Shown one piece after another: positions 7,001 through 44,653 of a stretch of DNA of 44,653 bases. Within the stretch, counting starts at the first letter, position 1. Each line of letters starts with the position of its first letter. The notes below the pieces were generated by a model. That model made no database searches and had not been told where the DNA came from. It saw only the letters and a list, made by a program, of their open reading frames with translations. The DNA lies in NCBI GenBank assembly GCA_017960855.1, contig JAGCYJ010000008.1:1-44653 (forward strand), written 5' to 3'. A program made the translations under genes and the position numbers. The DNA is from Alphaproteobacteria bacterium (GTDB lineage: Bacteria; Pseudomonadota; Alphaproteobacteria; Rs-D84).

Positions 7001-10000
7001 ATCTTGTATTAGATACATCGATTCTGCCTTCTCTCGTAATGATAATGCTGCCACCAGTTTGTTCTGTGTAGTAACCATCAAATTCCCAGTTGGTAAATGT
7101 TGGTGCTGTAATACTGGTTATACTTGTTGTTGCGGCTGAATCAGAATACCATCCAGTTGCATACTTCTCATATATGTATGTGGTTGTATTATTCTTAGGA
7201 TCAACCAATGTGATGGTATAAGTACCTGGGTTACAAGTAGCATTTGATGGGTCAAACTCATATCCTGGATCACAAGTAATGGTCATATTACAAGAACCGC
7301 TGGCATTACAGTCTGAACCATAGAATTGTTTACCTTGGATACAATAATCGACAGTCGTATCAGTGTAACATACAGGACTGTAATCATAGTCGCAGGTTGC
7401 GTTTTCTGGACAAGTATCTTTTGTACAGGGCAACTCGCAGGTCGTGTAACAAACACTTATATTAGAGAAGTTATTACCGCGTGACAAAGGATGCGTTTCT
7501 GGACATTCCGTACATTCATCAATGTTTAGATAGGTAAACGCTGGACAATAGATGTTGTCATAGGGGCACATAGTATCAGTCACATTCAAACACGTTGATG
7601 TGTTGTAATACATAATCCCAGAAACAGTTGACCAAGTTTGGAAAGTACAAGAGTTTGCAGGTTCTGGCGTCTGCGGGCAATCCCTTGGCGATACACCAAC
7701 AACGCACGGTGCATTATCACATTCTTTGTAGCAACCAGCCGAACTTGTAGAACCTGAATCAGATCCAGTGTAATCTGAACCCAGCGTTGTACAAGATACA
7801 CGACATCCAACGCCACCTTCAATCGCGGTACCCGTACCAGGACAGTAGTAGCCCGAACCACAGGTTTGCATGGTCGTGCCATCGTAATACTTGCCGGCCT
7901 CGCAATTTACGGTATTTTGTGACCAGTGTGCATATAAGATATATGATTGTTCTGCGGCTTTGTCCCAATTCCGCACGGAATGACCAGTTGAATCATAATA
8001 CGATGTTCCACCTGTCTGTGCATCAAAATACCCGGTTAAAGAGAAGGTGTCACGTGTTGCAACGGATGACAATGTTGGCATCGGTGAACCGAACGTAGCC
8101 GTCACAGATGTTTGTCCGTCTGTTCCACTATCTGATCCGCGGTTTGGTGATAATGTGATGTTGTATGTCTTTCCAACACATCCATCGCCAGCAGCATTGG
8201 GTTCATATCCTTCGTTACATGTAAACCCATCTGTTCCACCAGGGCAGTCAGCATTGCTTGGACATGTCACACATGCACCATCTTTCAAATAATAGCCAGA
8301 ATTACACGATGTAGCAGAGCAATTATCTGTCGTTGGGTTTGCTGATGTAACCCTGCCGGCAACAGCGCTGGCACCAGGTACATCTGTTGTTTTACAGTCG
8401 CGATAACATTGTCCAACAACAGTGGATCCTGCGTCTGATTTAGGATATACAGGATTTATTGCTTCGCATGCTGTACAACTGGTTGCGGTTGTTGATGCAA
8501 AATAGTTCGCTTGTGCGACAACTGGCGCAACGACGGTCTTGTTACAAGTAGTCGTATTGGTTGAACAACCGCTTCTGACATTACCGTCGCCATCACCCGT
8601 TGTATTGGAATAGGCCACATATTCACAAGCGGCGGGTGTGCAATCTACAAATGTTGCGCTTGAGCACCCCGCAGGAATAGTTTCTATGTGTTCCCCAGTT
8701 GATGGACGCAGTTTTGTGTCACTGTAACATTGGGTTATTGCAGTAGATGCGGTGCTTTCTGTGTTTGGATATCCGGTTGGACATGTCTGACACGCAGCAC
8801 TGGCTTGTGCGCTTGATGTCTTGTAAGAGCCAGTTGCACACGGTAACCATACCGCATAAACAGTTGTTGATGAATTGATTGTCATTGTTGTTGTTCCGCT
8901 TGTCGCAGATGCGGACGTTGACCATCCATCAAAGACATAGCCGGCACGATAAAATGATGTTGTCGCACCACTTGCCAAAGTACATGAAACACCGGCAGTA
9001 CATGTGGTGTTACTTGGTTTTGTTCCAGATCCACCGTTCAGGTTATATGTAACAGTGAAAGCATCTTGGCTCCAAGTTGCTTTAAGAGCGATATTGCCAT
9101 ATGTGCCAGCGGCAATTTTGAAACTTGTATCGCCACTGCTAGAAGAACCAGAACCCCAATTTGTTGGCGCGGTTGTCACAGTCCAGCCAGTAAATGTATA
9201 ATTTGCTCTTGTAGGATTGGTAACATTTATTGTTTGGGTGACATTATATGTCGCAGGATGTGTTGCACCAGATGGCCAAGAACCATTATCCAAATTATAA
9301 GTTATATTGTATGTATCGGCAGTACATGATACTGTTGAGCCAGATACGGTTGCATTACTATACCCACCCAAACATGTTCCGCTATATGTACAAGAGTTTG
9401 TGCCCTTCGATACGCTACATGTGGCGGCACCTGTTCCCTTGGTACAGGTATCACATGTAAAGTCGGTAATAGGGCATACACCAGGATTTGCTGCATCACA
9501 TGAACCACCATAGTGCTGATCGCCGGATGTAGAATAATTTGTATTATATGTACATGTCGCATTATCTGGACATGTTGCTTGCCCAGAGCATGTCTTGGTA
9601 CAAGACGTATAGCAAGTGCTCTGACTATCTCTGTTACCATCAGAATTTGTATACTCATTTCCTAGTGTTGTACATGATACACAAGCGGTTCCGTTAAAGT
9701 ATTCACCATCTTGACAATTCGCAGCTGTTTCATTCCATACAGCAGTCAAGGTTATTGTTGCACCATTTTCTGTTGTGATATTAGTTATATCTCCACCACC
9801 GGCAACAGACGACTTACTTGGAGTGCAAGAACTGTTGTTTGATTTATTACAAGAGATAGTCCATCCACCAAAGTCATAATTGGTTTTTACCAATGAACCC
9901 TTTGAAGCAGCGGTACAGGTCTGACCATAAGTACAAGTATGATTAGATGGTTTTGTTCCACCGGTATTACCATTACCATTATATGTCACAGTAAAGGTAT

Positions 10001-10574
10001 TAGGTGCGCATTCTTCCCCACTTGCATGATAACCTGTGGCTGTACAGTTTGGTGTCCAACTACCATAAGTCGCGGTACATGCGCCACCAGCTGTGCTGCT
10101 GTATGTAACAGAACGAGTTCTGGTACCACCAGTTATGTTTTGTGTTTCGGTATCATTTAATCTGGAACAAGGTTTACATTCGCCAGAATCTAATTCATAG
10201 TTAGCATCACAAGTAATGGTTTTTGTGCCACATCCAGAACAAGCACCCCATTGACTACATCCCGTACATTGGGATACACCACTAGATCCCGCTGTGCCGC
10301 CGGTGTAATTACCGGTACATGTCTGTGTGCCTGCGTTTGCCTGGCATGTACAGGTCCCATGATCAACACTGCACGTTGTTTGAGTGCAAGATTGTGTGCT
10401 GGTGTTGTTGGTGGCACTGGTACATGCCAAGCAATCACCATTGGATAGATAATATCCAGCAGTACAACTTGTGTACTCTATATCGCACACATAGCCCTCA
10501 GCGAACGCATTTAGTGAAAATACGAACACGAACAATGACAGCAAAAACCCGAGAAAACAGCGCTTTTTTCCCAT
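1062..10574 (-). CDS. Giant secreted cysteine-rich protein with InlB-like repeats (3170 aa)
   Basis: The start is placed at the ATG at 10574, with a purine-rich GAGGGGAAG just upstream and the same MGKKR-type signal peptide as the paralogue. A longer reading from 10664 would run through the promoter and lacks a signal. Cleavage is expected after residue 25 (NAFA). About eight InlB/Listeria-Bacteroides-type repeats are visible. Each opens with an (Y/F)T(I/V)T(Y/L)-x-x-NGG-like strand and closes with a (L/V)YA(H/Q/V)W-like strand. The first starts near residue 192 and the last is near 2100. They are embedded in many Cys modules of the CPAG(S/Y)YC or C-x-x-GYY type. The last third is almost purely Cys-rich, including three near-identical units. 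No membrane anchor or sorting signal is seen at the C-terminus (ends NPGYMSW). Such a protein should need periplasmic disulfide formation. Adhesion or surface coating is plausible but unproven. Confidence 0.9.
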   Translation of the reverse strand: MGKKRCFLGFLLSLFVFVFSLNAFAEGYVCDIEYTSCTAGYYLSNGDCLACTSATNNTSTQSCTQTTCSVDHGTCTCQANAGTQTCTGNYTGGTAGSSGVSQCTGCSQWGACSGCGTKTITCDANYELDSGECKPCSRLNDTETQNITGGTRTRSVTYSSTAGGACTATYGSWTPNCTATGYHASGEECAPNTFTVTYNGNGNTGGTKPSNHTCTYGQTCTAASKGSLVKTNYDFGGWTISCNKSNNSSCTPSKSSVAGGGDITNITTENGATITLTAVWNETAANCQDGEYFNGTACVSCTTLGNEYTNSDGNRDSQSTCYTSCTKTCSGQATCPDNATCTYNTNYSTSGDQHYGGSCDAANPGVCPITDFTCDTCTKGTGAATCSVSKGTNSCTYSGTCLGGYSNATVSGSTVSCTADTYNITYNLDNGSWPSGATHPATYNVTQTINVTNPTRANYTFTGWTVTTAPTNWGSGSSSSGDTSFKIAAGTYGNIALKATWSQDAFTVTYNLNGGSGTKPSNTTCTAGVSCTLASGATTSFYRAGYVFDGWSTSASATSGTTTMTINSSTTVYAVWLPCATGSYKTSSAQASAACQTCPTGYPNTESTASTAITQCYSDTKLRPSTGEHIETIPAGCSSATFVDCTPAACEYVAYSNTTGDGDGNVRSGCSTNTTTCNKTVVAPVVAQANYFASTTATSCTACEAINPVYPKSDAGSTVVGQCYRDCKTTDVPGASAVAGRVTSANPTTDNCSATSCNSGYYLKDGACVTCPSNADCPGGTDGFTCNEGYEPNAAGDGCVGKTYNITLSPNRGSDSGTDGQTSVTATFGSPMPTLSSVATRDTFSLTGYFDAQTGGTSYYDSTGHSVRNWDKAAEQSYILYAHWSQNTVNCEAGKYYDGTTMQTCGSGYYCPGTGTAIEGGVGCRVSCTTLGSDYTGSDSGSTSSAGCYKECDNAPCVVGVSPRDCPQTPEPANSCTFQTWSTVSGIMYYNTSTCLNVTDTMCPYDNIYCPAFTYLNIDECTECPETHPLSRGNNFSNISVCYTTCELPCTKDTCPENATCDYDYSPVCYTDTTVDYCIQGKQFYGSDCNASGSCNMTITCDPGYEFDPSNATCNPGTYTITLVDPKNNTTTYIYEKYATGWYSDSAATTSITSITAPTFTNWEFDGYYTEQTGGSIIITREGRIDVSNTRFTEDTTLYAHWTQGMYTCTAGRTATEVQPGELEQCPAGYYCPGGEVAVEYKDTVDSGCVKTCPTDAGGGTVTSPTGSSTIEACQTTRTGVPLNDGTGGGDQVCNYKDADDAYTNCGKVQIKYCNEGRYRVAPDAQSCNKVGTGYWSPAPTNTTEDNISMVRYSCSVLPGYDNATTGGENAETSGLPTACYNTCSDQNVLDESNNIIGSRAANPRTVNFAGTITAYDYENATVTTSGSYPACTYDAPVCNPGYHTVGTTCEPNIYTFTLNKNGGTGGDNGPIYMKYNTGWFSDSSATTPLTSITMPTQGSQNCTGYEATIEEAQWSVINESGVITASNKLVSYNDYTTPIELMASWIQKKTETCAAGEYYDYDTRSCTTCPAGSYCEGGTAYDDEDADGDDHFITPCPTAVAGTTYTPAQEWNGTALVDIAPNVTSNTGSSEASACYATVKLTATKGAGSRICHYASGKYESNCSNEQILTCDSGFYLDTTNPSDCTAVGYQYYSATYLTTRDRCPEAVYEYGDTRNTISTDGTESELVTSCVREGVWDETAHGGRTTRCHWNTSTDTYSTNCDSYTIRKCAAGYWDALEGVTTSDDTVDCVAVGLGYYSPAPENMDPTMTTDTISTQRSQCPAGTGAVDVVSTNPTTATTTSAAITACYLTCNATKNLNGTIVNVTNSPVHYNTTKNTYDTCIYDSDTCPEDMWCDTDGFHNCPADKDGTPGKADLVPNQKYRGIETCYVLYNPFVVTENYNHVWEHGTGWVKAFYEGTEANGDYTNYYNVGALTCDAGYYYDSSIFCSGVNTCYYSPAQSAFPSENPTMTTPGSSISAIACPAGCSGSEPYAYSYEQCYKACDLTTSAFAHSKTVVPVSDYVTGASATTYNACAYEITCVTGYDVQSNGTPNPSCVAHEYTITLDKNGGAGSTPASVNCVFDSGACALPAIVDTRTGYSTANKWCTNADGSGTCYDAGTTVTTNISANASDTTLYAQWTPNIYTITLNHNGAATAGAPATVYLKYATGWYSDAGATTSITQLTTLPVKGVMTFAGYKGNDVNVIGSDGKFITSVAALTFTAGNATVVAQWSDAPITCPAGTYYAGTGEDPTDPNVCKTCEENNYCEGTTVDTNSGEAGMTVCPDGGKSPAGSDDISDCYKELLPTYEADHGHGTQTCYYDNEARSYSARCKDFAITSCDAGYWLAGESDIDCSEADVGYYSGDDELIRHQCPNGGTTMANNKTAESIYECYKTGLDYTAPDSSGSGTQSCWYSSGEGDSAVYGRECFDQSINACRGGYYRANSTDVTCTEVGQNNYSPENDIERHACPDGGKTNGITTADIGLCFKDGLEYEATHGGGSQTCNWNDDPDVQAYNIGCGDKKITWCEGGYWLADALALDCVPVGYNSYSPNRDTNRYACQPGTITLTETSDSEDDCFECPEDHVCNPDIGDKTCAELTNGQYTRSDAGTSDPAYCWAECEVSSPAAEMDGRDYNDAGNVPDTCVITKCEPGYYLEDNACVTCPAGSYCDGNDKNDCPASHPNSDTGNSSIDLCYTDCEVTPPAATMSGRDNYGVADTCEITTCEPGYYLENGTCQTCPAGSYCDGTDKHTCPSPYTQSDEGASDAKYCYKDCDNAANATAMSGRDYNNNGGGEPADTCEIVSCGVGYMFNADKTQCVRCEAGNYCDGTDGGNGDGSTSCPAGWPNSAPGATRKDQCYRECTEHDENDCHLVPEGGSEYNAYWNDKCKYTATVNGNPADYDEDTGMCTMTGCQTGYEMISGVCEPCNRENALSYETEGTCMVSACAIGYHPKADQCESDILECTPQAPNSTYAEQKWNGTLGAYETCIIKTCEEDYHLASNACVANEQVCTVANGVGVKTWNADRKDWDPCEATSCAPGYTNDPSEKNNASEQCSECRNKFSILGEVAASGYITGCEIATCMYQGEKYNLENNECVPICDRPYSDETGSVMWNDMLKKCVRTCNPGYMSW
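1870..2605 (-). repeat. Three tandem ~76-residue Cys modules inside the giant gene
   Basis: Three consecutive units share the order: CE or CD, then (M)SGRD or MDGRD, DTC(E/V)I, C(E/G)(P/V)GY, a CPAGSYCDG or CEAGNYCDG block, and an ending CY. Units one and two are close at DNA level (both encode CEPGYYLE and CPAGSYCDG). This indicates recent internal duplication. Boundaries are approximate. Confidence 0.75.
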
Positions 10575-10596
10575 AACTTCCCCTCTTTTATATTTT

Positions 10597-10626
10597 ATCG
10601 TAGAAAAAATGGGGCGGGTCACGCAA
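10597..10626 (-). promoter_or_regulatory. Promoter of the giant Cys-rich gene
   Basis: On the minus strand TTGCGT (10621-10626) and TACGAT (10597-10602) are separated by 18 bases. The block resembles the one before the paralogue at 955-984 in both hexamers, the spacer length and a T-run next to the -10. The expected transcript start is about 15 bases before the ATG. Confidence 0.5.
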
Positions 10627-10654
10627 GTGAAAAATGATAATATGAATGTAGAAA

Positions 10655-10678
10655 TAAAAAACACGCCATTGGCGTGTA
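10655..10678 (-). terminator. Terminator after the CAU tRNA
   Basis: On the minus strand ACACGCC and GGCGTGT form a 7-bp hairpin with a 3-base loop, followed by TTTTTTATTTC. It lies 22 bases after the tRNA 3' end. Confidence 0.8.
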
Positions 10679-16385: not shown

Positions 16386-16790
16386 TCATTTTATTGGACA
16401 CATAACTGTACGACTTTGTATTTTGTTGTTATAATTTGCTACCAGTTCGTTATATACCTGTAATGGAAATCTTGCTTCATCTTCAAATTCCAAACATGCT
16501 TCTTTGTGTAATCCTTTTGGATTGTGTAACAAACAATTTTTTTCGCTACAGTTGGTTTGTCTGTTACATTTGAAACTGTATTCTACAAAACCAGGTTTGC
16601 GGGGCCATTCTCGGCTTTCTCTGATATTTGCAAACAAAGAAAAATCAGAATCTGTAATGTTATAAATATGCCAACGATAGTAGTCGTTTTCTGTTGTACG
16701 ATATTCCGCTGCATTTGGGTGCTTGTCAATGAAGTCCAAAATCATTCGTTGAGAATTTGATAACCGTAGTTTCTGAAAAAAACGTATCAT
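16386..16790 (-). CDS. Tandem paralogue A (134 aa), unknown function
   Basis: This is the fourth member of a tandem family lying between tsaB and rimI. It starts MIRFFQKL, chosen over the Met at 16826 because it matches the other members' N-termini. It shares the N-terminal pattern of a short aromatic helix, then SxxQxxILDFIxxH. A central Cys cluster (C-x5-C-x4-C-LLH) and a C-terminal F-x-x-x-VY helix follow. The Cys cluster could bind a metal. This is the most divergent member in its last 15 residues. Confidence 0.75.
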   Translation of the reverse strand: MIRFFQKLRLSNSQRMILDFIDKHPNAAEYRTTENDYYRWHIYNITDSDFSLFANIRESREWPRKPGFVEYSFKCNRQTNCSEKNCLLHNPKGLHKEACLEFEDEARFPLQVYNELVANYNNKIQSRTVMCPIK

Positions 16791-16807
16791 TTTATTTTCC
16801 CTTTCTT

Positions 16808-17203
16808 TTAACGTCCACATGGACACCCGTGTTGCGCAACATAATGATCTAACATCTTTTCATACACCTTTTCGGCAAAATTTCCACAGCCGGAAATAGG
16901 CGTAGTTCTAAGCGAACAATGTTGACATTCGTCTTTAACCGGTTTAGCACATTGAAAAGAATAATGTATTTCATTCGGTCTGGATTCATCAGAGAATTTT
17001 GATAGTGTTGCATTCAATACCATATCGTCAGCTTGAATTGAAACACTGTGACGCGTCCCAATATGAATACTATAATGAAACTCATCTTCACGCATTGTTA
17101 TGGGCTGTTTGACATACGTGATAGAATTTTTGTGTTCTTTGATGAAATCCAAAATCTTGCATTGCGTCGGTGTAAAGAACCATCTTTGAAAAATATTTGC
17201 CAT
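16808..17203 (-). CDS. Tandem paralogue B (131 aa), unknown function
   Basis: The protein starts MANIFQRWFF, continues with TPTQCKILDFIKEH, and ends with FAEKVYEKMLDHYVAQHG, matching members C and D. A Cys cluster (C, then ECQHC, then SGCG) sits near residues 85-110 and another Cys pair is at the C-terminus. An AAAGGTGA ribosome site precedes the ATG. There is no signal peptide. Confidence 0.75.
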   Translation of the reverse strand: MANIFQRWFFTPTQCKILDFIKEHKNSITYVKQPITMREDEFHYSIHIGTRHSVSIQADDMVLNATLSKFSDESRPNEIHYSFQCAKPVKDECQHCSLRTTPISGCGNFAEKVYEKMLDHYVAQHGCPCGR

Positions 17204-17229
17204 TATTTCACCTTTTGGTTGCGTTGTTT

Positions 17230-17631
17230 TTATCTTGATTTCTTAGTCGTGCCACCATGATGTTCAACAAAGGTATTGAACATTTCCGAATAGACCCTTT
17301 TTGCAAAATCTGTTCCTTTCCCTTCTTCGGCTTTCTGCAAAATGCCATCGGGTGTGCGTTGTTCAAAATGATAACTTATTATGCCATTGGTGGGGTAATT
17401 TGGGTTTGTTTCACACACAGAACATAGTGTAAGCAGTGGTTCCGTTTTAGATATGCTGAATATATGAAACTTGTAAACACCTGACGCACTGTATTGATAT
17501 GTAATACTGTCGGCGTTTTCCTTAATTGTGTCCAGCAATGCCATGTTATCCTGTGATAACTTAATGTTGTGTATATCGTAATTTGTTGATTTCTTTCTGC
17601 GTAAAAATATTCTGTTAATCAAATTACTCAT
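17230..17631 (-). CDS. Tandem paralogue C (133 aa), unknown function
   Basis: This member shares SQDNMALLDTIKENADSITY near residue 26 and FAKRVYSEMFNTFVEHHG near the end with members B and D. It has a longer basic N-terminus (RRKK) and has largely lost the Cys cluster: the region that is Cys-rich in the others reads EQRTPDGILQKAEEG. That makes it the odd member of the family. Confidence 0.72.
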   Translation of the reverse strand: MSNLINRIFLRRKKSTNYDIHNIKLSQDNMALLDTIKENADSITYQYSASGVYKFHIFSISKTEPLLTLCSVCETNPNYPTNGIISYHFEQRTPDGILQKAEEGKGTDFAKRVYSEMFNTFVEHHGGTTKKSR

Positions 17632-17643
17632 TGTGTTGTCTCT

Positions 17644-18033
17644 TTAATATGTTGGATATCCATTTAGTGCGACATAATAGCGCATCATCTTCTTGTATAA
17701 ATGGTGCGCAAAACGGGTGTCTTTATCAGAAATCTTTCCATCATGAAACAAGCAATGTTGGTTGTTACATTTTTCACAGTTTCGATTTGCCGCATTGCGT
17801 GGTGACATAAAATATGACACAGATGGTTTCTGGTGATTTGTATATTCGGTAAAATCCACATTTAACCATACTTGATCATTATATATAGACATGTGTCGCG
17901 TGTTGCTTACGGGGGTGTCGTGCTGATATGATGTTCCATGGCCGTATTTAATATTACCAGCATTTTGTTCAACAAGATTCAAGATAGCTAGTTCTGTGGG
18001 TGAGTATGCAATTTTTTCAAATATTGTAATCAT
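17644..18033 (-). CDS. Tandem paralogue D (129 aa), unknown function
   Basis: This is the first member of the tandem family after tsaB. It starts MITIFEKIAYSPTELAILNLVEQ, of which SPTELAILNLV parallels the TPTQCKILDFI of member B. The Cys cluster NCEKCNNQHCLFH near residues 88-100 closely resembles member A. The C-terminus FAHHLYKKMMRYYVALNG is family-typical. An AAGGA ribosome site lies within the end of tsaB. Confidence 0.75.
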   Translation of the reverse strand: MITIFEKIAYSPTELAILNLVEQNAGNIKYGHGTSYQHDTPVSNTRHMSIYNDQVWLNVDFTEYTNHQKPSVSYFMSPRNAANRNCEKCNNQHCLFHDGKISDKDTRFAHHLYKKMMRYYVALNGYPTY

Positions 18034-18582: not shown

Positions 18583-18962
18583 AGTTGTTTTTGTTTCTCA
18601 AAAAGGTTGTAATACAGAATAGGAACAATGCCATAAAGAAGGAACTTAGGTTCTTCTTGGCTTTTTGTGTTTCTGATTGATGCCACATAACTTGCGTGGT
18701 CAAGTATGTCTTCGGACACCCCTGGCAGATATTCCTTGATTGCTCTTATCTCTAGTTTGTGTGATTGGGCGATATACATTTTACGTGCCCAACCAACACT
18801 TCTGGGTTCAAGATCCATTTCGGTTATGAAAAAGTATTGAATTTTATTATAAATATCTTTGTATTGACCGATATTTTGCGCGGTTTCAGCATCTACTATA
18901 CATTTTCGTTTTACGCCATTGTGGTCGTGATATGTTATTTCCTTGGTTGTTTCTTTACTCAT
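18579..18962 (-). CDS. Hypothetical 127-aa protein between lon and tsaB
   Basis: Not recognised. The start overlaps the stop of the Lon-like gene by ATGA and the end overlaps tsaB in the same way, so all three are probably translated together. The sequence is polar with a short N-terminal beta-rich part (ITYHDHNGVKRKCIV) and then helices. It contains no Ser-Lys protease dyad or GxSAG-type motif, so it is not the missing Lon protease domain. Confidence 0.75.
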   Translation of the reverse strand: MSKETTKEITYHDHNGVKRKCIVDAETAQNIGQYKDIYNKIQYFFITEMDLEPRSVGWARKMYIAQSHKLEIRAIKEYLPGVSEDILDHASYVASIRNTKSQEEPKFLLYGIVPILYYNLFEKQKQL

Positions 18963-20716
18963 AATCTTACCCCAAATCCAATTTTTTTATTTAATCCCAC
19001 CGATTTATGTACAGATAATAAATCATCTATTTTTGCGATTGTAAAATCTGTAGGTACATCTTCGCCATCATTTTGCAACAATGCGCGACGCAACATTGCG
19101 GTCAGTTCGCGCTGTAATTCACGAACACCTTCTTCGCTGGTATAATTTTGAATTATATGGCGAATTGCATCATCCGATATAAATATGTTTTGATCTGCCC
19201 AGCCCGTATCGTGTGCCGCGCGTTTAATAAGGTGTTCGCGCGTAATACGGACTTTCTCATCCATGCTGTATCCCGGTATTTCAATGATTTCCATACGATC
19301 CTTTAATGCGTTGGAAATGTTCAGCGTGTTGGCGGTCGCGATAAACAGAACATTTGATAAGTCAAAATCTACTTCCAAATAATGATCGCGGAAGTTTTTG
19401 TTTTGTTCTGGATCCAAGATTTCCAACAAAGCGGATTCCGGATCGCCGCGCCAATCACGTCCCATTTTATCTATTTCGTCCAGCACGATAACAGGATTAT
19501 TTGCTTTGCAACGTTTCAGTGCATCCATAATGCGACCAGTTTGCGCACCAATATATGTTTTGCGATGACCGCGGAAATGCGCCTCGTCTGAAATACCACC
19601 CAATGAAATGCGTTGATATTTACGACCCAATGCCGCCGCAATAGATTTTCCCAGTGATGTTTTACCAACACCCGGCGCACCAACAAAGCACAAAATGCTG
19701 CCTTGGTTTTTGCCGGTTTTCTTCATAACAGCAATATGTTCCAAAATGCGTTCTTTGACCGCGTCCATACCAGAGTGTTCGCTGTCCAGCACCGCACGCG
19801 CGGTTTTTAAATCAATAGGTTGTTTATCAGGTTTATCCCATGGCATAGACAACATTTCGTCCAGATATGCTTTTAACAAACCGCCTTCGTTTGACATTGG
19901 CGACAAAGTGCGCATACGGCGCCATTCGGACATCGCTTTGTCTTTGGCGTCCGCCGGCATAGACGATTTTTCAATGCGGGCGCGCATATTTTCAGCATCC
20001 ATTTCTTCATCAACTTCGCCCATTTCATGCTGAATCGCGCGCATTTTTTCCTGTAATATCGCTTCGCGGCGACCTTTTTCCATTTGTTGATTTATACGGC
20101 GGTTAATGGAATCTTCGATTTTCATTGTTTCCGCCAGCAAATTTACTTGTTCCAGCAAAATAATCAACTTTTCGCGCCAAGTTTCCGCACACAGAATGTT
20201 GATTGCAATATCGGTATCAATGTCCAACATTTGTACCACCGCATCAACAAAGGCGGGCAGTGGATAGTTTTGAATAACGGTGCGCAGTTTGTCCATTTTG
20301 AACTTGCGGGCACTGGACATTGCTTGAATATTATTCGCAATTTTATCGCGCAGGGCAATTGTTTGGTCAAATTCACTGTCGTCCAAAACATTTATCGGGC
20401 TAACTTCGCCCATGAATATACCGTTTTCCACAGATATATCGGTAATGTGTACAGCACTTATCGTGCGAACAATTGCGTGCAATGAACCGTCCGGCATACG
20501 CAGAACCTGGGCAATTTCGCCAATTGTGCCGACTTTATAAATGTCGGCGGGTTCGGCGGGGTATCCCCAACTGTGTTGTGCAGTCAAAACGACTTGCTTG
20601 CCAGCATTGGCAGCCGCCTCTATACAGGCGACAGACAGCGGATTGTCTATATAAATCGGAACAGTAAGCCCAGGATTTACGACCAAATCACGAAAAGGCA
20701 GAATATATTCTTTCAT
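18959..20716 (-). CDS. Lon-like AAA+ ATPase lacking the protease domain (585 aa)
   Basis: The protein has the Lon N-terminal domain (ILPFRDLVVNPG at residue 5; domain to about 200), the linker helix (INQQMEKGRREAILQEKM near 208) and a complete AAA+ module. The module has Walker A GAPGVGKT (346-353), Walker B VIVLDEID (409-416), the RISLGGISDEAHFRGHRKTY stretch near 369 and an arginine-containing C-terminal helical domain. It ends at residue 585 (FGVRL), about where the S16 peptidase domain with its Ser-Lys dyad would begin; full Lon is about 780-810 residues. The stop overlaps the next ATG by 4 bases, so this looks like a settled gene end rather than a fresh frameshift. It would act as an ATP-driven unfoldase or chaperone without proteolysis, by inference. 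Confidence 0.93.
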   Translation of the reverse strand: MKEYILPFRDLVVNPGLTVPIYIDNPLSVACIEAAANAGKQVVLTAQHSWGYPAEPADIYKVGTIGEIAQVLRMPDGSLHAIVRTISAVHITDISVENGIFMGEVSPINVLDDSEFDQTIALRDKIANNIQAMSSARKFKMDKLRTVIQNYPLPAFVDAVVQMLDIDTDIAINILCAETWREKLIILLEQVNLLAETMKIEDSINRRINQQMEKGRREAILQEKMRAIQHEMGEVDEEMDAENMRARIEKSSMPADAKDKAMSEWRRMRTLSPMSNEGGLLKAYLDEMLSMPWDKPDKQPIDLKTARAVLDSEHSGMDAVKERILEHIAVMKKTGKNQGSILCFVGAPGVGKTSLGKSIAAALGRKYQRISLGGISDEAHFRGHRKTYIGAQTGRIMDALKRCKANNPVIVLDEIDKMGRDWRGDPESALLEILDPEQNKNFRDHYLEVDFDLSNVLFIATANTLNISNALKDRMEIIEIPGYSMDEKVRITREHLIKRAAHDTGWADQNIFISDDAIRHIIQNYTSEEGVRELQRELTAMLRRALLQNDGEDVPTDFTIAKIDDLLSVHKSVGLNKKIGFGVRL

Positions 20717-37998: not shown

Positions 37999-38391
37999 TT
38001 ATTTGTTCGCAGATTTTTCTGCTGATGTTGCAGACAAATCTTCCACAATACGTGCTTTCTTGCCCGACAAACCACGCAAGAAGAACAATTTTGCACGACG
38101 AACACGACCGATACGAACTTTTTCAATCTTTTCGATTGCCGGTGTGTAAAGTGGGAACTTGCGTTCAACGCCAACACCATAAGATTCACGACGAACCGTA
38201 AATGATGCGTTATTGCCATTGCCACCATCACGTGCGATAACGACACCTTCGAACACTTGGATACGGAACTTGTCGCCATCTTTAATTTTTACATGAACTT
38301 TTACTGTATCACCCGCTTTAAAGTCAGGGATTTTCTTGTCGGCAGCAACTTTTGCGATATTCGCTGCTTCTACTTTTTTCAAGATACTCAT
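37999..38391 (-). CDS. rplS: 50S ribosomal protein bL19
   Basis: The 130-residue protein has the bL19 core: [54 protein letters not shown], and [25 protein letters not shown] short low-complexity tail follows. bL19 sits at the 30S-50S interface. An AAAGGATAA site lies in the end of trmD, one base of spacing between genes. It is the last gene of the operon before the terminator. Confidence 0.98.
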
Positions 38392-38392
38392 T

Positions 38393-39073
38393 TTACTTAT
38401 CCTTTATTAAGTCCGGACGACGTTCTTTTGTTATTTCGTCCGATTGTTGTTTCCGCCACCGTTCTATATTGCCGTGGTGGCCAGACAGCAGGACTTCTGG
38501 GACTTTGTGTCCACGCCATACTGACGGTCGGGTATATAACGGCCATTCTAACCCGCCGATTTCAAAACTTTCATTCGCGGTGGATTCAGCGCCACCGTGC
38601 AGCACATTATCTAACACGCGAACGCAACTGTCAATAAAAACTTGCGCGGCGATTTCGCCACCCGACAGTATATAGTCGCCAATGGAAAGTTCCATTATAT
38701 CATATTCGTCGATAATACGCTGGTCAATTCCTTCGTACCGACCGCAAAGCAGGGTATATGTCGCATCTTTGTCGGCGGAAAACTGGCGTACCATTTTCTG
38801 GGTCAGTTGTGGGCCTCGTGGCGAAAAGTATATGATTTTCCCGCGTTTTTTAAGTGAATCAATCGCATCTGACAGTGGTTCTGGACGCATAACCATACCC
38901 GCACCACCACCGAATTGTTCGTCATCAACACTGCCATAATTATTTATGGCAAAGTCGCGAATGTTCACCGCGTCATACGACCAAATCCCTTTTTCAAGGG
39001 CGCGACCAACAACCCCGCCGGAAAGTGTGCCGGGGAACATTTCTGGAAAAATAGTCAGTATATTAAAGTGCAT
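38393..39073 (-). CDS. trmD: tRNA (guanine-N1)-methyltransferase TrmD
   Basis: TrmD makes m1G37 in tRNAs with a G36. The 226-residue SPOUT-fold enzyme shows [11 protein letters not shown] at the start, [45 protein letters not shown], and [11 protein letters not shown] at the knot. Length is normal for the family. No ribosome site is visible; translation may depend on the 39076 gene, whose stop is 2 bases upstream. Confidence 0.98.
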
Positions 39074-39075
39074 TG

Positions 39076-39687
39076 TTATTTTTGCTTTTTCTTTACATTA
39101 CATATACATGTATGACACTTGGTCAAGAAAGCTGAAAACACTTTTGAATCAGCATGTGGCACAAAGACGTCATAACTTGAATCTAGGTGTGGCATGATAA
39201 CCACATTAGCATGCGTTTTTTCTAATTCCTGCACGATGGGGCATTTGTGGCGCAACGTGTACAACGCGCCGAAACAAAACTGCTGCAATCTAAAATCACA
39301 TGTTGATTTCGCAACACACTGTTTTGACCATGTATTCGCAGGGGCAGTCAAATGAGATTTGTCAATGAATCTTACTTCAGCTGTGGTTTGGTTGTGGGGG
39401 TCAATAGTTTGTAAGCCAGATTTTTGTTTTCTGAAGTTCCCAAGATCCATTATTTCAACTGTTTTACCATCTAAAAGCATACGACTGCCATGGCAATATC
39501 CACCGTGTGGACATGGCATACGTTCAGGGATAACATGCACCCCATTTGTAATATCATATTTTTGAAATTGTTCACATACATAAACACACGGTACTGGCAC
39601 CCTGTACACTTGGCGTGGACCTTTGCCGTAAAGCAGCCATTCTAGTGTAAACTTTGTTGATGTATTTTGTTTGTTTTTGTCAGTCAT
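39076..39687 (-). CDS. Cysteine-containing hypothetical protein (203 aa) in the rpsP operon
   Basis: Not recognised. The start at 39687 (MTDKNKQN) is favoured because an AAGGGA site lies upstream and the longer frame would overlap the previous gene. Cys groups include VPCVYVCEQF, MPCPHGGYCHG, CVAKSTCDFRLQQFC, KCPIV and KCHTCICN near the C-terminus. These look like metal-binding or redox pairs, but no known zinc finger fits. No signal peptide is seen. It lies between trmD and three smaller Cys-containing genes. Confidence 0.75.
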   Translation of the reverse strand: MTDKNKQNTSTKFTLEWLLYGKGPRQVYRVPVPCVYVCEQFQKYDITNGVHVIPERMPCPHGGYCHGSRMLLDGKTVEIMDLGNFRKQKSGLQTIDPHNQTTAEVRFIDKSHLTAPANTWSKQCVAKSTCDFRLQQFCFGALYTLRHKCPIVQELEKTHANVVIMPHLDSSYDVFVPHADSKVFSAFLTKCHTCICNVKKKQK

Positions 39688-39707
39688 ATCTTGTTCCCTT
39701 GTCAATT

Positions 39708-39983
39708 TTATTTCTGTACACCGTACTTTTTGTGACATGCCGCCGCATAGTACAGAAGGGTTTGAAGACCGTATTTGTCCAGTTTTGGTAAATCAATATC
39801 AATTCTGCGACCAAAAACTTCCCTGTTTGTGCGGTCAAAAACACTCATGTCTTTGTAGCGAGATTCTTGTTGCATACATTTTACTTCGCAAAACACAAAA
39901 CAGTTGTTATTAAAATTACCTTCCCATGGGCAATTTTCACAACTGCATATAAGTTCGCCACAAAATCGTATTTCTATCTTCAT
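39708..39983 (-). CDS. Cysteine-containing hypothetical protein (91 aa) in the rpsP operon
   Basis: Six Cys cluster in the first 37 residues (FCGELICSCENCPWEG, then NCFVFCEVKCMQQ). A polar part with RRIDIDLPKLDKYGLQTLL follows. A zinc-binding or iron-sulfur role would fit the spacing but is unproven. No family recognised. It has no signal peptide. Confidence 0.72.
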   Translation of the reverse strand: MKIEIRFCGELICSCENCPWEGNFNNNCFVFCEVKCMQQESRYKDMSVFDRTNREVFGRRIDIDLPKLDKYGLQTLLYYAAACHKKYGVQK

Positions 39984-39997
39984 TTTTTAATATCTTT

Positions 39998-40246
39998 TTA
40001 TTTGTGTGTTGGACTGTGTTTACACATGGCCTTTAATCTTTGAACGTTTTTATAGATTTCAGGTAATTTTGCCAATGATTCAGGATCTGTGTTGCGTAAA
40101 ACGACATTGTTTGTTGAACCGCGATCACGGTGAAGTAAAATGTTTTGCGTGCTATTAATGTAGTTTTCCACAGGGCACATATCTTTTAAGCCGCGTTGGC
40201 AATCAAGACATGTTGTTAAAACAAGCGAGAATGTAGGATTTTTCAT
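39998..40246 (-). CDS. Small Cys-motif protein (82 aa), paralogue of its upstream neighbour
   Basis: The N-terminus has LTTCLDCQRGLKDMCPVENY, which lines up with LLECRSCYCPYTYDRCPVSQF of the 99-residue gene upstream (C-x2-C-x6/8-CPV). Both end with a short helix containing IYK or TYK and a final Cys. AAAGGAAT precedes the ATG. The three Cys and CPV may bind a metal. Function unknown. Confidence 0.72.
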   Translation of the reverse strand: MKNPTFSLVLTTCLDCQRGLKDMCPVENYINSTQNILLHRDRGSTNNVVLRNTDPESLAKLPEIYKNVQRLKAMCKHSPTHK

Positions 40247-40258
40247 TTTTAATTCCTT

Positions 40259-40558
40259 TTATTTTGTGTTTTGAGGATTACGATAAGGACACGTGTCGCG
40301 AATTTCTGCTATTTTCTTATATGTTTCAAAAAGTTCGTCTTTCAGATTTGGATTTTCATCGGCTTCATTGTGGAATCTGTAAAGGTATTGAGCAATGTAT
40401 CCCAAATCTCGTCCAGATGCCATTCCATGATATTCTATGGCAGGTTGTTTCGGGTTATACAAGAATTGAGACACAGGGCAACGGTCGTAAGTATAGGGGC
40501 AATAACATGACCGGCATTCCAAAAGAGTTAAAGAATGAATAACGCTTGTCGGTTCCAT
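40259..40558 (-). CDS. Small Cys-motif protein (99 aa), paralogue of its downstream neighbour
   Basis: This has a C-x2-C-x8-CPV motif at residues 15-28, a middle part with EYHGMASGRDLGYIAQYLYRF, and a C-terminal helix ending RDTCPYRN. It shares the Cys motif and helix with the 82-residue gene that follows, which suggests tandem duplication. AAGGGAATT precedes the ATG. It lies 12 bases after rimM. Confidence 0.73.
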   Translation of the reverse strand: MEPTSVIHSLTLLECRSCYCPYTYDRCPVSQFLYNPKQPAIEYHGMASGRDLGYIAQYLYRFHNEADENPNLKDELFETYKKIAEIRDTCPYRNPQNTK

Positions 40559-40569
40559 TGTAATTCCCT

Positions 40570-41031
40570 TTACACAAGTATCGTTTTGTTTTTCATATCA
40601 ACATCTGCGCCGATAAAAGAAACATATTCGCCATTGTCCAATTCAATTATGTCGCCCGCGCCAAAGTTTTGGAAACCGGCAACAATACCGATTTTTTCGC
40701 CACCACGCATAACCGAAAAGCCAATCAGGTCCGCTTGGTAATATTCGCTGCCTTTAAGGTCGGGCAGGGTGTCGCGATTTATAAACAATTCAGTGCCACG
40801 CAGAGTTTCCGCCGCGTTACGATCATCATAACCCGCAATATGTGCGATTATGACGGTTGAATTTGGAACAACGCGGATGAATTTAAAGTCGGATTCTTTG
40901 AACTTTGCACTTTGAACTTTGAACTTTTGAAAATCCCGGGGATTTTCGCTGTATGTCTGTATTCTAACATCCCCGCGAATACCCTGGGGGGCAACGATTT
41001 TTCCGACCAAGATTTGTTTGCTTGTCGTCAT
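40570..41031 (-). CDS. rimM: 16S rRNA processing protein RimM
   Basis: RimM assists 30S maturation by binding uS19 and the 3' domain of 16S rRNA. The 153-residue protein has the N-terminal VGKIVAPQGIRGDVRIQTYSE and IAGYDDRNAAETLRGTELFI. LPDLKGSEYYQADLIGFSV and the PRC-barrel part follow, ending SFIGADVDMKNKTILV. The start at 41031 is chosen because it lies 5 bases after the previous stop; a longer frame overlaps that gene. A stretch near residue 36 (FQKFKVQSAKFKESDFKF) comes from a short DNA repeat and probably forms a loop. No clear ribosome site. Confidence 0.93.
   Translation of the reverse strand: MTTSKQILVGKIVAPQGIRGDVRIQTYSENPRDFQKFKVQSAKFKESDFKFIRVVPNSTVIIAHIAGYDDRNAAETLRGTELFINRDTLPDLKGSEYYQADLIGFSVMRGGEKIGIVAGFQNFGAGDIIELDNGEYVSFIGADVDMKNKTILV
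40894..40928. repeat. Five-copy 7-base repeat inside rimM
   Basis: On the plus strand five consecutive 7-mers read TTCTTTG, AACTTTG, CACTTTG, AACTTTG, AACTTTT. On the coding strand they give the KFKVQSAKFK stretch. The sequence departs from the usual RimM sequence there, so it looks like a repeat expanded or inserted into the gene. Confidence 0.7.
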
Positions 41032-41036
41032 ATTGT

Positions 41037-41438
41037 TTAGTGTTGTCTTTGCTCGTGCAAACTGCATAGCGTCATATAATTGTGTGGACAGCCGTCAAAC
41101 ATATCAGCACTGGTATAAATTACATTAGAAAGACGTTTTTTGGCGTGATATTCAATCGCATTACGCCATTCGTCAAGCACGCGTTGTTTGTCGCGACACC
41201 ATTTGAAATTAAACGGACAGCGTGTTTCAGGGCAAATTTTCCGTTCTTCCTTGTCCTGTTGTGCGCTATACACATTATGATGCGATGAAGCAAAGAAATT
41301 CGGTTCTTTATCCAAATCTATGCTATACACATCTGGCGCGTGATATGACGATGCCACCACTGACTTGTCCAAGCGGACATCAAACGTTTCAGTCAGTGGT
41401 GCAACATATGTTAATTTAATTTTCATGTCGTTCGTCAT
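41037..41438 (-). CDS. Cysteine-containing hypothetical protein (133 aa) between rpsP and rimM
   Basis: The N-terminal half is beta-like (KIKLTYVAPLTETFDVRL). A Cys-rich segment, KICPETRCPFNFKWCRDKQRVLDEW, lies near residues 67-92, and the C-terminus has FDGCPHNYMTLCSLHEQ. The Cys-x5-Cys-x6-Cys spacing could coordinate a metal. The start may be Met1 (41438) or Met5 (41426). It sits 20 bases after rpsP and 5 bases before rimM. Not recognised. Confidence 0.73.
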   Translation of the reverse strand: MTNDMKIKLTYVAPLTETFDVRLDKSVVASSYHAPDVYSIDLDKEPNFFASSHHNVYSAQQDKEERKICPETRCPFNFKWCRDKQRVLDEWRNAIEYHAKKRLSNVIYTSADMFDGCPHNYMTLCSLHEQRQH

Positions 41439-41458: not shown

Positions 41459-41914
41459 TTATTCAGCAGCAGCTTCAGTTGCAGGTGCTTCTTCGGCAAC
41501 TGGTGCTTCGGCTGGGACTTCTGCGGCGGCCTTGGCTGCGGCTTCGGCGGCTGCTTTTTCTTCTGCTATCTTTGCCAATTTTGCTTCTTTATCTTTAATC
41601 TTCTGTTGTGTCTTTTCCGAAGGTTGATTCTTCTTTGTTTGAACAGGGATTGGTTTTGCAGTTGCCAAACCGGCCTTGACCAAGAACTTGTAAACGCGGT
41701 CGGATGGTTGTGCACCCTTGGCAATCCATGCCTTGATTTCATCAATTTTCAAAACAACGCGTTTGTCGCTATCTTTTGGTTGCATTGGGTCATATTTACC
41801 AACAACTTCCAAAATGTTGCCAGAATTACGTGCATTACGTGAATCTGTGACAACAACGTGATAATATGGGCGTTTTTTTGCCCCATAACGTGCTAATCTG
41901 ATAACAGTAGCCAT
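41459..41914 (-). CDS. rpsP: 30S ribosomal protein bS16 with Ala-rich extension
   Basis: The core (residues 1-85) shows [40 protein letters not shown] and [29 protein letters not shown], typical of bS16, which helps fold the 16S 5' domain. About 65 further residues form a Lys-rich helix ([14 protein letters not shown]) and then a run of Ala, Glu and Pro. This tail is longer than in E. coli (82 residues in total) but such tails occur in alphaproteobacteria. AAGGAG precedes the ATG. Confidence 0.97.
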
Positions 41915-42086: not shown

Positions 42087-44653
42087 TCAATACGATTGCC
42101 CCGAAGATGAGTTTTGTTGGTTTTGCATATTGTGCTGCGCCATACGCAATTTAAGGCCAGCAATCTTTTGTTTTGCCGTTTTAAATATGTTTGGTCTTAT
42201 TATTTCAATACCATACTTTGCCAGTTGTTTGAACAGTATCCTTTCGCCGTTCATCATGACTTCTTGTTCTTTTAGATTTTTATACTGTTTATTGGTTAAT
42301 TTTATACTTTTTACCTTCGTAAAATCAGTACGCATAAGCGCGATAAAATCTGGTCCGTATGTAAAGTCCAAATCACCCGCAAACACAGATTCCCAAAGGT
42401 ACACACAATGTTTGGTTGAATTTGGATTGAATTTAAAGCTTTTAACATTTGTCAAATCACATTCGTGCAGAATCAAGTCCTCTTTTACCATACTAAAATC
42501 CAAATCACCAGATATGCGGCTCTTCACTATTTCTACTCGATTCATGTCTGGGTTGAATAACATTTTTTTAACCTTGGATAAATCGCAGTTTTCTATTTTT
42601 AAATGGTCTATTCCGGCAAAATTCCAAGTACCAGCAATCTTTTGATCCACCAACGACAAGCTGCCCGTATCAGCCCAGCCAGCCGTCACAATTACATTTT
42701 TTAGTCCTGTTAAATCGCTGGCGTCTACACGTGCTGTTTTTGAAAAGTCAAGTTCCAGCAAGCTTTCCGATTTAATCCCGTTTATTAATGGGGTATAGGA
42801 AAGTTTTACGCGGGAAACCTTGTTTAAATCTGCGCCCGTTAGGTCTGGCGAATGTAAAAAACCAAAATCCAAGGGACCCATTAATTTGGAATTGTGTAAT
42901 TTAATACGTGATGCCCCCGGGTTAAACTTTATGCTGGTTGCTTCGGACAAATCACAATCAAGCAATTCCAGCGTCGATACTTCACTAAAATCCAAATTAC
43001 CCGTCAATTTTAAAGGTGTGTTTTCTAAACGTATAACATGCGCTTCTGAATTCAATTTTATGCTGGTCACATTAGTTAAATCACAATCATGCATTTCTAA
43101 TTCTTGAACATTAGAAAAATCCAAATTTCCTTTGAGTTTAGTGTTTGTAATTTTTATACATTTTGCAGATGGGTTTAATTTTACAACATTGGCTTTGGTT
43201 AAATCAGAATCATGCAGTTCTATAAAATCAGTTTCACCAAAATCAACATCATTTTCCTGAGAAAAACCATGCGCCGTAAAAGCTGTGTAGCTATGTAGAA
43301 AATGGCTGTTGTTGATTTTTATGTTTTTTATTTTTGTTAAATCGGTATAGCCCAAATTTAAATGGCCTACACCGTGAAAATCGTATTCACCAGATAGTTT
43401 TAATCCACGACTGCCATCCAAGGTTATTACCGCGGCAAGGGGATAAAACTTTATATCTTTGACATCAGTCAAATCACAGTCCGATAAATACAATTTATTT
43501 GTTTGACTGAAATCCAAATTACCAGATAACTTGCAATCAACAATCTTTACGGTTTGATATTTTCGAAGCTCGGCAAGTTGCATATTTGTTATTCCAGATA
43601 AATCGCAATTGTATAATTCCAAATTGCTTACATTACTAAAATCAAAATCCCCAATTAATTTACATGGTGATTTTTCTACGTGAATCTTGGGTGCATTTGG
43701 ATTGAACTTTATGTTACTCATCTTGGACAAATCACAACCATACAGTACCAAGTCGTTTATACCACTAAAATCTAAAATGCCGGCGGGTAATTTGGTATCA
43801 ACAAGTCTTACTTCACTTGAGTTACGCGGAAATTTAATGCTTTTAACATTACTTAAATCGCAATTGTGTAATTCAAGATGTTTTACATTACTAAAATCCA
43901 AATCACCGGACAATTTGGCATTATTAAATCGTATAGTATTCGCATTTGGATTTAGTTTAAGATCGGTCACATTAGTTAAATCCGCATTACCTAAATCTAA
44001 AGTTATAACATGACTAAAATCATGACTCCCCGATAATTTGGCACCAGTAGTTTCCAACTCTATAATAAGTGCATATGGATTAAACTTTATTGCTGTGTCT
44101 TTTGACAATGGGCATCGTTTTAAATGTAAAATATTTACGCCACTAAAATCAAAAAGCTCAGGCGATGGCAAATCAGCACACGAAAAGCAAGAAATTCTAT
44201 CTGCATTCGGGTTGAATTTTATACTGGGAACTTTTTTGCAATCGCAATTAAGCAATGACACGCCTGTTGCTTTGCTAAAATCTAAAGCAAAACCCAATTT
44301 AACAAATTCCACAACGTTTTCGCCGCTTCCAAATTTTATTCCGGTAACATTTGTCAAATCACAATCAGATAACGCAAGGTGTTTTGTTCCGCTAAAATCA
44401 ATATCGCCAATCAGTGCCGTCCCATGCCGTTTAAATGCTACTTCGTTCAAGTTAGATGCATCTATAAATGTTATTTTGCCGTCTTTTACATCCATAAAAC
44501 GTTTGCCGTTTACAAGGATTGTTTTTGTTTTGTCCTTGGCTGTGGATATGCTAATTTTTTTATCGTGCAGAAATTCGTTCAGTGAATTACAAAATTCCAA
44601 ATTGTCTTTCACAACAGATTCTACTGTATTATTACCCTTGGCAATGGTTAATA
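42087..44653 (-). CDS. Beta-solenoid/LRR-like repeat protein (partial at N-terminus)
   Basis: The frame runs from the stop at 42087 to the right edge without a stop, so the true start may lie outside. A GTG at 44612 would give 841 residues, but in-frame codons continue upstream of it. About 17 repeats of roughly 44-48 residues are visible. The consensus is L-DFS-x-V-x-x-L-x-L-x-x-CDL-(T/S)-x-V-x-x-IKFNPNA-x-x-I-x-L-x-x-(T/S)-x-L-x-G. The periodic hydrophobic strands with an Asn/Cys turn suggest a leucine-rich-repeat-like or beta-solenoid fold. The C-terminal 60 residues are helical, then Gln/Asn/Ser-rich. No signal peptide can be judged. No function assigned; protein binding is the usual role of such repeats. 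Confidence 0.88.
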   Translation of the reverse strand, partial: LTIAKGNNTVESVVKDNLEFCNSLNEFLHDKKISISTAKDKTKTILVNGKRFMDVKDGKITFIDASNLNEVAFKRHGTALIGDIDFSGTKHLALSDCDLTNVTGIKFGSGENVVEFVKLGFALDFSKATGVSLLNCDCKKVPSIKFNPNADRISCFSCADLPSPELFDFSGVNILHLKRCPLSKDTAIKFNPYALIIELETTGAKLSGSHDFSHVITLDLGNADLTNVTDLKLNPNANTIRFNNAKLSGDLDFSNVKHLELHNCDLSNVKSIKFPRNSSEVRLVDTKLPAGILDFSGINDLVLYGCDLSKMSNIKFNPNAPKIHVEKSPCKLIGDFDFSNVSNLELYNCDLSGITNMQLAELRKYQTVKIVDCKLSGNLDFSQTNKLYLSDCDLTDVKDIKFYPLAAVITLDGSRGLKLSGEYDFHGVGHLNLGYTDLTKIKNIKINNSHFLHSYTAFTAHGFSQENDVDFGETDFIELHDSDLTKANVVKLNPSAKCIKITNTKLKGNLDFSNVQELEMHDCDLTNVTSIKLNSEAHVIRLENTPLKLTGNLDFSEVSTLELLDCDLSEATSIKFNPGASRIKLHNSKLMGPLDFGFLHSPDLTGADLNKVSRVKLSYTPLINGIKSESLLELDFSKTARVDASDLTGLKNVIVTAGWADTGSLSLVDQKIAGTWNFAGIDHLKIENCDLSKVKKMLFNPDMNRVEIVKSRISGDLDFSMVKEDLILHECDLTNVKSFKFNPNSTKHCVYLWESVFAGDLDFTYGPDFIALMRTDFTKVKSIKLTNKQYKNLKEQEVMMNGERILFKQLAKYGIEIIRPNIFKTAKQKIAGLKLRMAQHNMQNQQNSSSGQSY

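What the first reader, a model, noticed from the sequence alone, without database searches (positions are those of the whole stretch)
39076..41438. rpsP-rimM-trmD-rplS operon interrupted by five small Cys-containing genes
The order is rpsP, 133-residue gene, rimM, 99-, 82-, 91- and 203-residue genes, trmD, rplS. The usual order has no such insertions. Each extra gene carries paired or clustered Cys (C-x2-C, CPV, CPxxxC). None has a signal peptide, so they are cytoplasmic and may bind metal or nucleic acid, possibly with ribosome biogenesis.
Basis: partly seen in the sequence, partly recalled or inferred. Interest (0 to 1): 0.62.

Follow-up and report, generated by a model that had tools for sequence, protein, structure and literature searches.

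The report
Changeable cysteine genes inside ribosome operons
In one genus of tiny-genomed gut bacteria, the genes for ribosome building are regularly interrupted by small, fast-changing proteins that match no known family and keep little except four cysteines, which hints at an undescribed metal-binding helper or guard system tied to protein synthesis.

Summary
In detail: five unannotated co-directional genes (133, 99, 82, 91 and 203/220 aa; 5.4% Cys) sit between rpsP, rimM and trmD. The window belongs to Candidatus Enterousia (Rs-D84, Alphaproteobacteria). In 80 named Enterousia loci plus the window, 67 of 76 complete operons hold at least one member of three mutually unrelated tetra-Cys families: A only between rpsP and rimM, B and C only between rimM and trmD; trmD-rplS is never opened (0 of 81). 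Outside the genus they were not found, apart from one weak hit with stops. Four Cys are almost the only conserved residues, dN/dS is about 0.18, and some copies look exchanged between species. Profiles hit this operon almost exclusively (57 of 61 hits). No convincing match in Pfam, NCBIfam, PHROGs, PADLOC or PDB. A fourth tetra-Cys family follows lepA in the rbfA-lepA region, in the window's own genome too; a non-Cys family fills lon-tsaB-rimI. So "metal or nucleic acid, ribosome-linked" gains genomic support but no functional proof. Best guess: small metal-stabilised proteins, co-translated with 30S-maturation and tRNA-modification factors, acting on them or guarding them; sequence turnover suggests conflict.

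The parts
41459..41914 (-). rpsP (ribosomal protein S16)
   Evidence: Pfam S16 3.8e-22
41037..41438 (-). p133, family A: tetra-Cys domain (CP-x-C ... CP-x-C) in its last 63 residues
   Evidence: family A profile 3.5e-20; the only whole-genome profile hit in G000
40570..41067 (-). rimM (16S rRNA maturation factor)
   Evidence: Pfam RimM 5.4e-17, TIGR02273 2.2e-30
40259..40558 (-). p99, orphan with 5 Cys and a B-like look
   Evidence: no convincing relative found (B profile E 0.011)
39998..40246 (-). p82, family B; Cys at 13, 16, 24 and 75 (it lacks the near-invariant Cys at 72 and has C16 instead)
   Evidence: family B profile 8.4e-11; the only whole-genome profile hit in G000, 1.4e-8; AF2 model pLDDT 74
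39708..39983 (-). p91, small protein with 8 Cys, clusters with two genes of L093
   Evidence: cluster of 3 at phmmer 1e-4
39076..39738 (-). p203/p220, family C domain in its N-terminal half plus a further Cys-rich half
   Evidence: family C profile 4.7e-28; the only whole-genome profile hit in G000, 6.3e-21
38393..39073 (-). trmD (tRNA m1G37 methyltransferase)
   Evidence: Pfam 1.8e-46
37999..38391 (-). rplS (ribosomal protein L19)
   Evidence: Pfam 3.2e-42
16386..18033 (-). four tandem paralogues (129-146 aa) of a second, mostly non-Cys family inserted between tsaB and rimI: the same kind of interruption in another operon
   Evidence: tsaB and rimI by Pfam

Best explanation
Shown: the genus Candidatus Enterousia carries several unrelated families of small, probably cytoplasmic proteins with four conserved Cys, encoded inside or beside translation-factor operons (rpsP-rimM-trmD; downstream of rbfA-lepA), with fast sequence turnover under purifying selection. 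Inferred: the four Cys hold a metal ion (most likely zinc) that stabilises a tiny scaffold whose surface is otherwise free to change. Inferred and uncertain: each protein is co-translated with its neighbours and acts on them, or on the maturing 30S subunit or tRNA that they serve, as an adaptor or as a guard against an inhibitor aimed at them; the need to keep pace with a changing partner explains the turnover, the tandem duplicates, the gain and loss and the apparent exchange between species.
For: Position lock: A 57/57 in rpsP-rimM, B 66/66 and C 21/21 in rimM-trmD among ORFs of the two gaps; whole-genome profiles hit this operon in 24/26 (B), 24/25 (A) and 9/10 (C) cases. trmD-rplS never opened (0/81); nearby conserved pairs hardly (F6-F10 0/52, F10-F7 0/51, F7-F4 0/52; but F3-F5 25/59 and F5-F6 9/64 did hold a called gene). 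Four Cys are almost the only conserved residues in A, B and the lepA family; A, B and C are not alignable to each other. Median dN/dS 0.18 in 41 pairs. B is modelled as b-a-b-b-a, pLDDT 74; by topology its Cys lie at one end (my inference; coordinates not seen). Independent second locus: gap after lepA of 150 bp or more in 20 of 25 measurable genomes, Cys columns 27, 27, 26, 26 of 27, with rbfA upstream in the window's genome. Near-identical single genes between species whose core genes differ: dS 0.02 against 0.25-0.40, and 0.06 against 0.44-0.66.
Against: No experiment, no homologue of known function, no demonstrated metal. B genes are absent from 11 of 11 tested genomes with short gaps, so the function is dispensable. 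The lepA family also occurs off its locus in 7 of 46 hits, some with no translation gene next to them. A helical family with few or no Cys (D) can occupy the same gap. The lon-tsaB-rimI family is not Cys-rich, so tetra-Cys is not the whole story. The sample for 'translation operons only' is small (two genomes, 600 kb).
Confidence: 0.37

Rival explanations
1. Defence or counter-toxin genes: small proteins that protect the cell, or its translation factors, from phage or competitor toxins, parked in core operons for steady expression.
For: Gene gain and loss, tandem copies and single-gene exchange between species; fast divergence with invariant scaffold Cys.
Against: No PADLOC or PHROG match worth the name (best PADLOC hit 0.027, 12.4 bits); no relatives in phage, plasmid or viral contigs, though those queries reach close relatives only; median dN/dS 0.18, none of 41 pairs above 1.
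Confidence: 0.25
2. Effectors of a partner-dependent bacterium, exported without a classical signal and acting on another cell.
For: Rs-D84 is thought to be an obligate symbiont or parasite (PMC12306168, whole text read); effectors often evolve fast and can be Cys-rich (general knowledge).
Against: Lodged in a ribosome operon at a median 3 bp from trmD, so expression is presumably constitutive; locus-locked; no signal seen.
Confidence: 0.12
3. Redox or metal housekeeping proteins (zinc store, thiol buffer) that hitch-hike on high operon expression without touching the neighbours.
For: Tetra-Cys as the main constraint; several unrelated sequences converge on it.
Against: Would not require each family to stay at one locus.
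Confidence: 0.13
4. Translated regulatory spacers or leader genes that tune trmD and rimM translation by coupling or by Cys availability; the proteins themselves do little.
For: Tight spacing to trmD; B. subtilis precedent in which the ylqD ORF upstream of rimM carries an mRNA-level control determinant (PMC10100781, passages).
Against: Purifying selection on the protein, conserved Cys over 80-130 aa, foldable models; no known structured RNA.
Confidence: 0.08

Closest known systems
Bacillus subtilis rimM operon with ylqC and ylqD (ylqC = KhpA, a KH RNA-binding protein; that name and the gene order are recalled)
   Same: Small genes lodged next to rpsP and rimM in the same operon; ylqC and ylqD appear in PMC10100781 (passages).
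   Different: Enterousia genes have no Pfam match, no KH family hit, keep little but Cys, and also lie between rimM and trmD. The B model's weak PDB resemblances include KH and HMA-like folds but none is significant (Foldseek E>=0.05, VIA Z<=6.4).
Small tetra-Cys zinc domains (zinc ribbons, treble clefs)
   Same: Two Cys pairs, CP and CxxC motifs, small size.
   Different: Family not matched: only single-member, noise-level Pfam zinc or Fe-S hits; the A model has no PDB match below E 5.6.
HMA / ferredoxin-like metal-binding domains
   Same: B model is b-a-b-b-a with metal-capable Cys; HMA chains among VIA rows, Z 5.2-5.8.
   Different: B has four Cys in its own pattern, and Z is in the range that the tool calls a common arrangement.

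Membership tests
KH-domain protein KhpA/YlqC | match to a KH family model | tested here: not met
   no KH family among the listed hits at E<=0.1 for the 53 B, 43 A and 14 C members scanned
KH-domain protein KhpA/YlqC | KH fold | tested here: inconclusive
   KH chains appear among weak structural rows, not significant
Zinc-ribbon/treble-clef proteins | four candidate metal-ligand Cys | tested here: met
   4 or more Cys in the matched domain in 57/57 A, 65/66 B, 21/21 C; conserved columns
Zinc-ribbon/treble-clef proteins | bound zinc | not testable with these tools
   needs metal analysis
Zinc-ribbon/treble-clef proteins | profile or fold match | tested here: inconclusive
   only noise-level hits
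Known anti-phage defence system | match to a PADLOC model | tested here: not met
   best 0.027 over 46 residues, 12.4 bits
Mobile-element or phage cargo | homology to phage or plasmid proteins, or dispersal in the genome | tested here: not met
   the collection searches reach close relatives only
Conserved members of the rpsP operon of the order Rs-D84 | present in other families of the order | tested here: not met
   profiles A, B, C and the lepA family find nothing in the 18 same-order genomes outside the genus

The most novel reading that the evidence does not exclude
Enterousia has a genus-specific layer of rapidly changing tetra-Cys proteins, of several independent origins, each tied to a translation-maturation gene (RimM/TrmD, RbfA/LepA, possibly GatCAB and an FtsJ-type rRNA methyltransferase), forming an evolving guard or adaptor system around ribosome assembly and tRNA modification.
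Probability: 0.3. Interest if true: 0.82.

Novelty: categorically new. Interest (0 to 1): 0.63.

Why it matters
Ribosomal operons are among the most conserved gene orders, and highly reduced genomes are expected to shed dispensable genes. A genus that keeps filling the same two gaps beside rimM with unrelated, fast-changing proteins that preserve little but four cysteines points to strong, changing selection near translation. If the proteins bind the 30S-maturation or tRNA-37 machinery, they would expose an unknown contest over ribosome assembly; if not, they show how new small genes become fixed in core operons.

Tried and rejected
Mobile-element origin: no phage, plasmid, viral-contig or PHROG match, families locked to one locus. 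Structured RNA in the gaps: no Rfam match. Common ancestry of A, B and C: profile-profile probabilities 0.4-1.7%. Fusion of a B domain to the C-terminal half of p220 (seen by eye): not supported (B profile E 0.97). Solved-structure homologues: none convincing. Known fold: no significant Foldseek row for B or A; a weak or missing match does not show a new fold. Non-functional ORFs: rejected by median dN/dS 0.18; of 49 pairs, 41 passed the dS 0.05-3 filter; one listed pair left out by it (dS 0.02) had a ratio of 1.63. General operon leakiness: 86 of 102 conserved same-strand neighbour pairs of G003 and G010 had no called insert in either.

Caveats. Gene calls are from my own dicodon caller, not Prodigal. 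The 28 'unassigned' gap ORFs include some out-of-frame artefacts over the rpsP tail, so I quote 67 of 76 loci (A/B/C only, counted by me from the table) rather than the script's 72. Gap lengths run between tblastn ends and so include unaligned gene ends. A Fisher test used a wrongly typed outgroup count and is not used. One search's empty answer has no positive genome in that call; the same profile rings in 20 of the 34 other genus genomes. Literature: searches listed no paper that I could recognise as being about these genes; most were seen as titles and abstract starts only. PMC8035907 was seen in passages.

Full report
What is there. The window's minus strand carries rpsP, a 133 aa gene, rimM, genes of 99, 82 and 91 aa, a gene of 203 (or 220) aa, trmD and rplS. 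Pfam confirms the four core genes; the five extras have no Pfam hit at E<=1 and nothing convincing in NCBIfam, PHROGs or PADLOC. They hold 33 Cys in 608 residues.

Which organism. The window is the first part of contig C6 of a genome whose genus relatives have 0.6-1.1 Mb. A TrmD scan of named genomes kept 80 loci at 82-90% identity, several named Candidatus Enterousia. A 2025 paper describes Rs-D84/Enterousia as reduced-genome gut bacteria that appear partner-dependent; it does not mention these genes (PMC12306168, whole text read).

Recurrence. Among 80 named loci plus the window, the rpsP-rimM gap is 150 bp or more in 66 of 76 measurable loci, rimM-trmD in 67 of 78, trmD-rplS in 0 of 81. ORFs tiling the gaps on the operon strand number 186, 163 of them with 4 or more Cys. 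67 of 76 loci with both gaps measurable hold at least one member of families A, B or C (counted by me from the table); one locus, L131, has nothing. In the 12 measurable genomes of other families of the order and class the two gaps are 17-244 bp, except one 932 bp gap with a 228 aa Cys-free ORF. Called small genes inside the gaps average 5.3% Cys (n=154) against 1.3% outside (n=795).

Families. Iterated profiles on 185 distinct gap ORFs gave A (57 members, all rpsP-rimM), B (66, all rimM-trmD), C (21, all rimM-trmD), D (16, few or no Cys, all rpsP-rimM) and 28 unassigned. In B (53 rows aligned) three Cys are invariant and the fourth is at 90% or more, with mean column identity 18%. In A (43 rows) two Cys are invariant and one more is at 90% or more; the remaining one slides in the alignment. 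In C (14 rows) four Cys are among eleven invariant columns. A, B and C do not align to each other. p133 is A, p82 is B, p220 is C; p91 clusters with two genes of L093; p99 has no convincing relative.

Locus lock. Whole-genome profile searches covered 59 genomes: the window's own, 34 of the genus, 18 of the order, 6 of the class. B: 26 places, 24 at this operon; the others are a weak B-like gene beside secreted-looking proteins in G014 and a hit with stops in class member G055. A: 25 places, 24 here, the other in G020 beside a gene that I recognise as rpoD (recalled). C: 10 places, 9 here. In 11 named genomes chosen for short gaps the B profile found nothing anywhere.

Evolution. In 41 usable pairs the median dN/dS is 0.18, none above 1, so these are real proteins under constraint. 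Some single genes are nearly identical between species whose flanking genes differ: L128/L151 first B gene dS 0.02 against 0.25 (trmD) to 0.40 (rpsP), while their second B gene has dS 0.75; L128/L135 second B gene dS 0.06 against 0.44-0.66. That looks like gene-by-gene exchange; I ran no formal recombination test.

Structure. B modelled with 53 rows: b-a-b-b-a, pLDDT 74, no significant Foldseek match, best VIA Z 6.4. A domain modelled with 43 rows: Cys-bearing N-terminal turn, one long helix, C-terminal Cys pair, pLDDT 81, no match. No coordinates were visible to me, so Cys clustering is inferred from topology only.

Elsewhere in the genome. In 600 kb of two relatives, 22 of 302 small genes were Cys-rich; most begin with signal-like sequences. 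Of the few others that I could not name, two lie between lepA and an integrase-like gene (one in each genome), one between gatC and gatA (Pfam GatC and Amidase) and one next to a gene that I recognise as typA (recalled). After lepA: of 30 genus loci, 25 had both flanking genes in reach; 20 of these had a gap of 150 bp or more; 27 ORFs there form one family whose Cys columns are kept in 27, 27, 26 and 26 of 27. In the window's own genome, rbfA, a 144 aa gene and lepA are followed by four such genes. Its profile is again genus-only (27 of 59 genomes), but 7 of 46 hits lie off the locus, one of these between an SRP M-domain gene and an FtsJ-type methyltransferase gene. Inside the window a mostly non-Cys family of four tandem genes lies between tsaB and rimI, and ORFs of similar size occur in one or other gap of lon-tsaB-rimI in many of 30 loci.

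Reading. The gaps around rimM and after lepA are persistent homes for small proteins that share no detectable ancestry but share a tetra-Cys plan. The simplest common cause is a shared task near the maturing ribosome or tRNA, with a metal-stabilised scaffold and a surface that keeps changing. Whether the change is conflict, co-evolution with a fast RimM (rimM protein identity is lower than that of trmD in nearly all pairs listed) or weak constraint cannot be decided here.

Noticed in passing
window 16386-18033: Four tandem paralogues of 129-146 aa (about 25% identical) between tsaB and rimI; ORFs of similar size in lon-tsaB or tsaB-rimI gaps of many genus relatives.
   Followed up: partly
window 18959-20716: Lon-like gene of 585 aa with substrate-binding and AAA domains but no protease-domain match in Pfam at E<=0.001.
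   Followed up: no
window 1062-10664: Giant 3200 aa Cys-rich repeat protein (219 Cys in 3155 residues as called) next to a second similar gene at the contig edge; likely secreted.
   Followed up: no
window 42087-44612: 841 aa repeat protein with a DUF3737/pentapeptide-like match directly upstream of rpsP.
   Followed up: no
L336 (G000:C3) 3066-4687: Four tandem tetra-Cys genes of the lepA family in the window's own genome, before an integrase-like gene that is found in 33 of 34 genus genomes searched.
   Followed up: partly
L328 3858-4361: SRP M domain (Pfam SRP_SPB) apparently encoded as a separate 167 aa gene in relative G015, with a lepA-family gene beside it.
   Followed up: no
L131: Named Enterousia intestinigallinarum chromosome with no ORF assigned in either gap; a natural 'empty' state.
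   Followed up: partly
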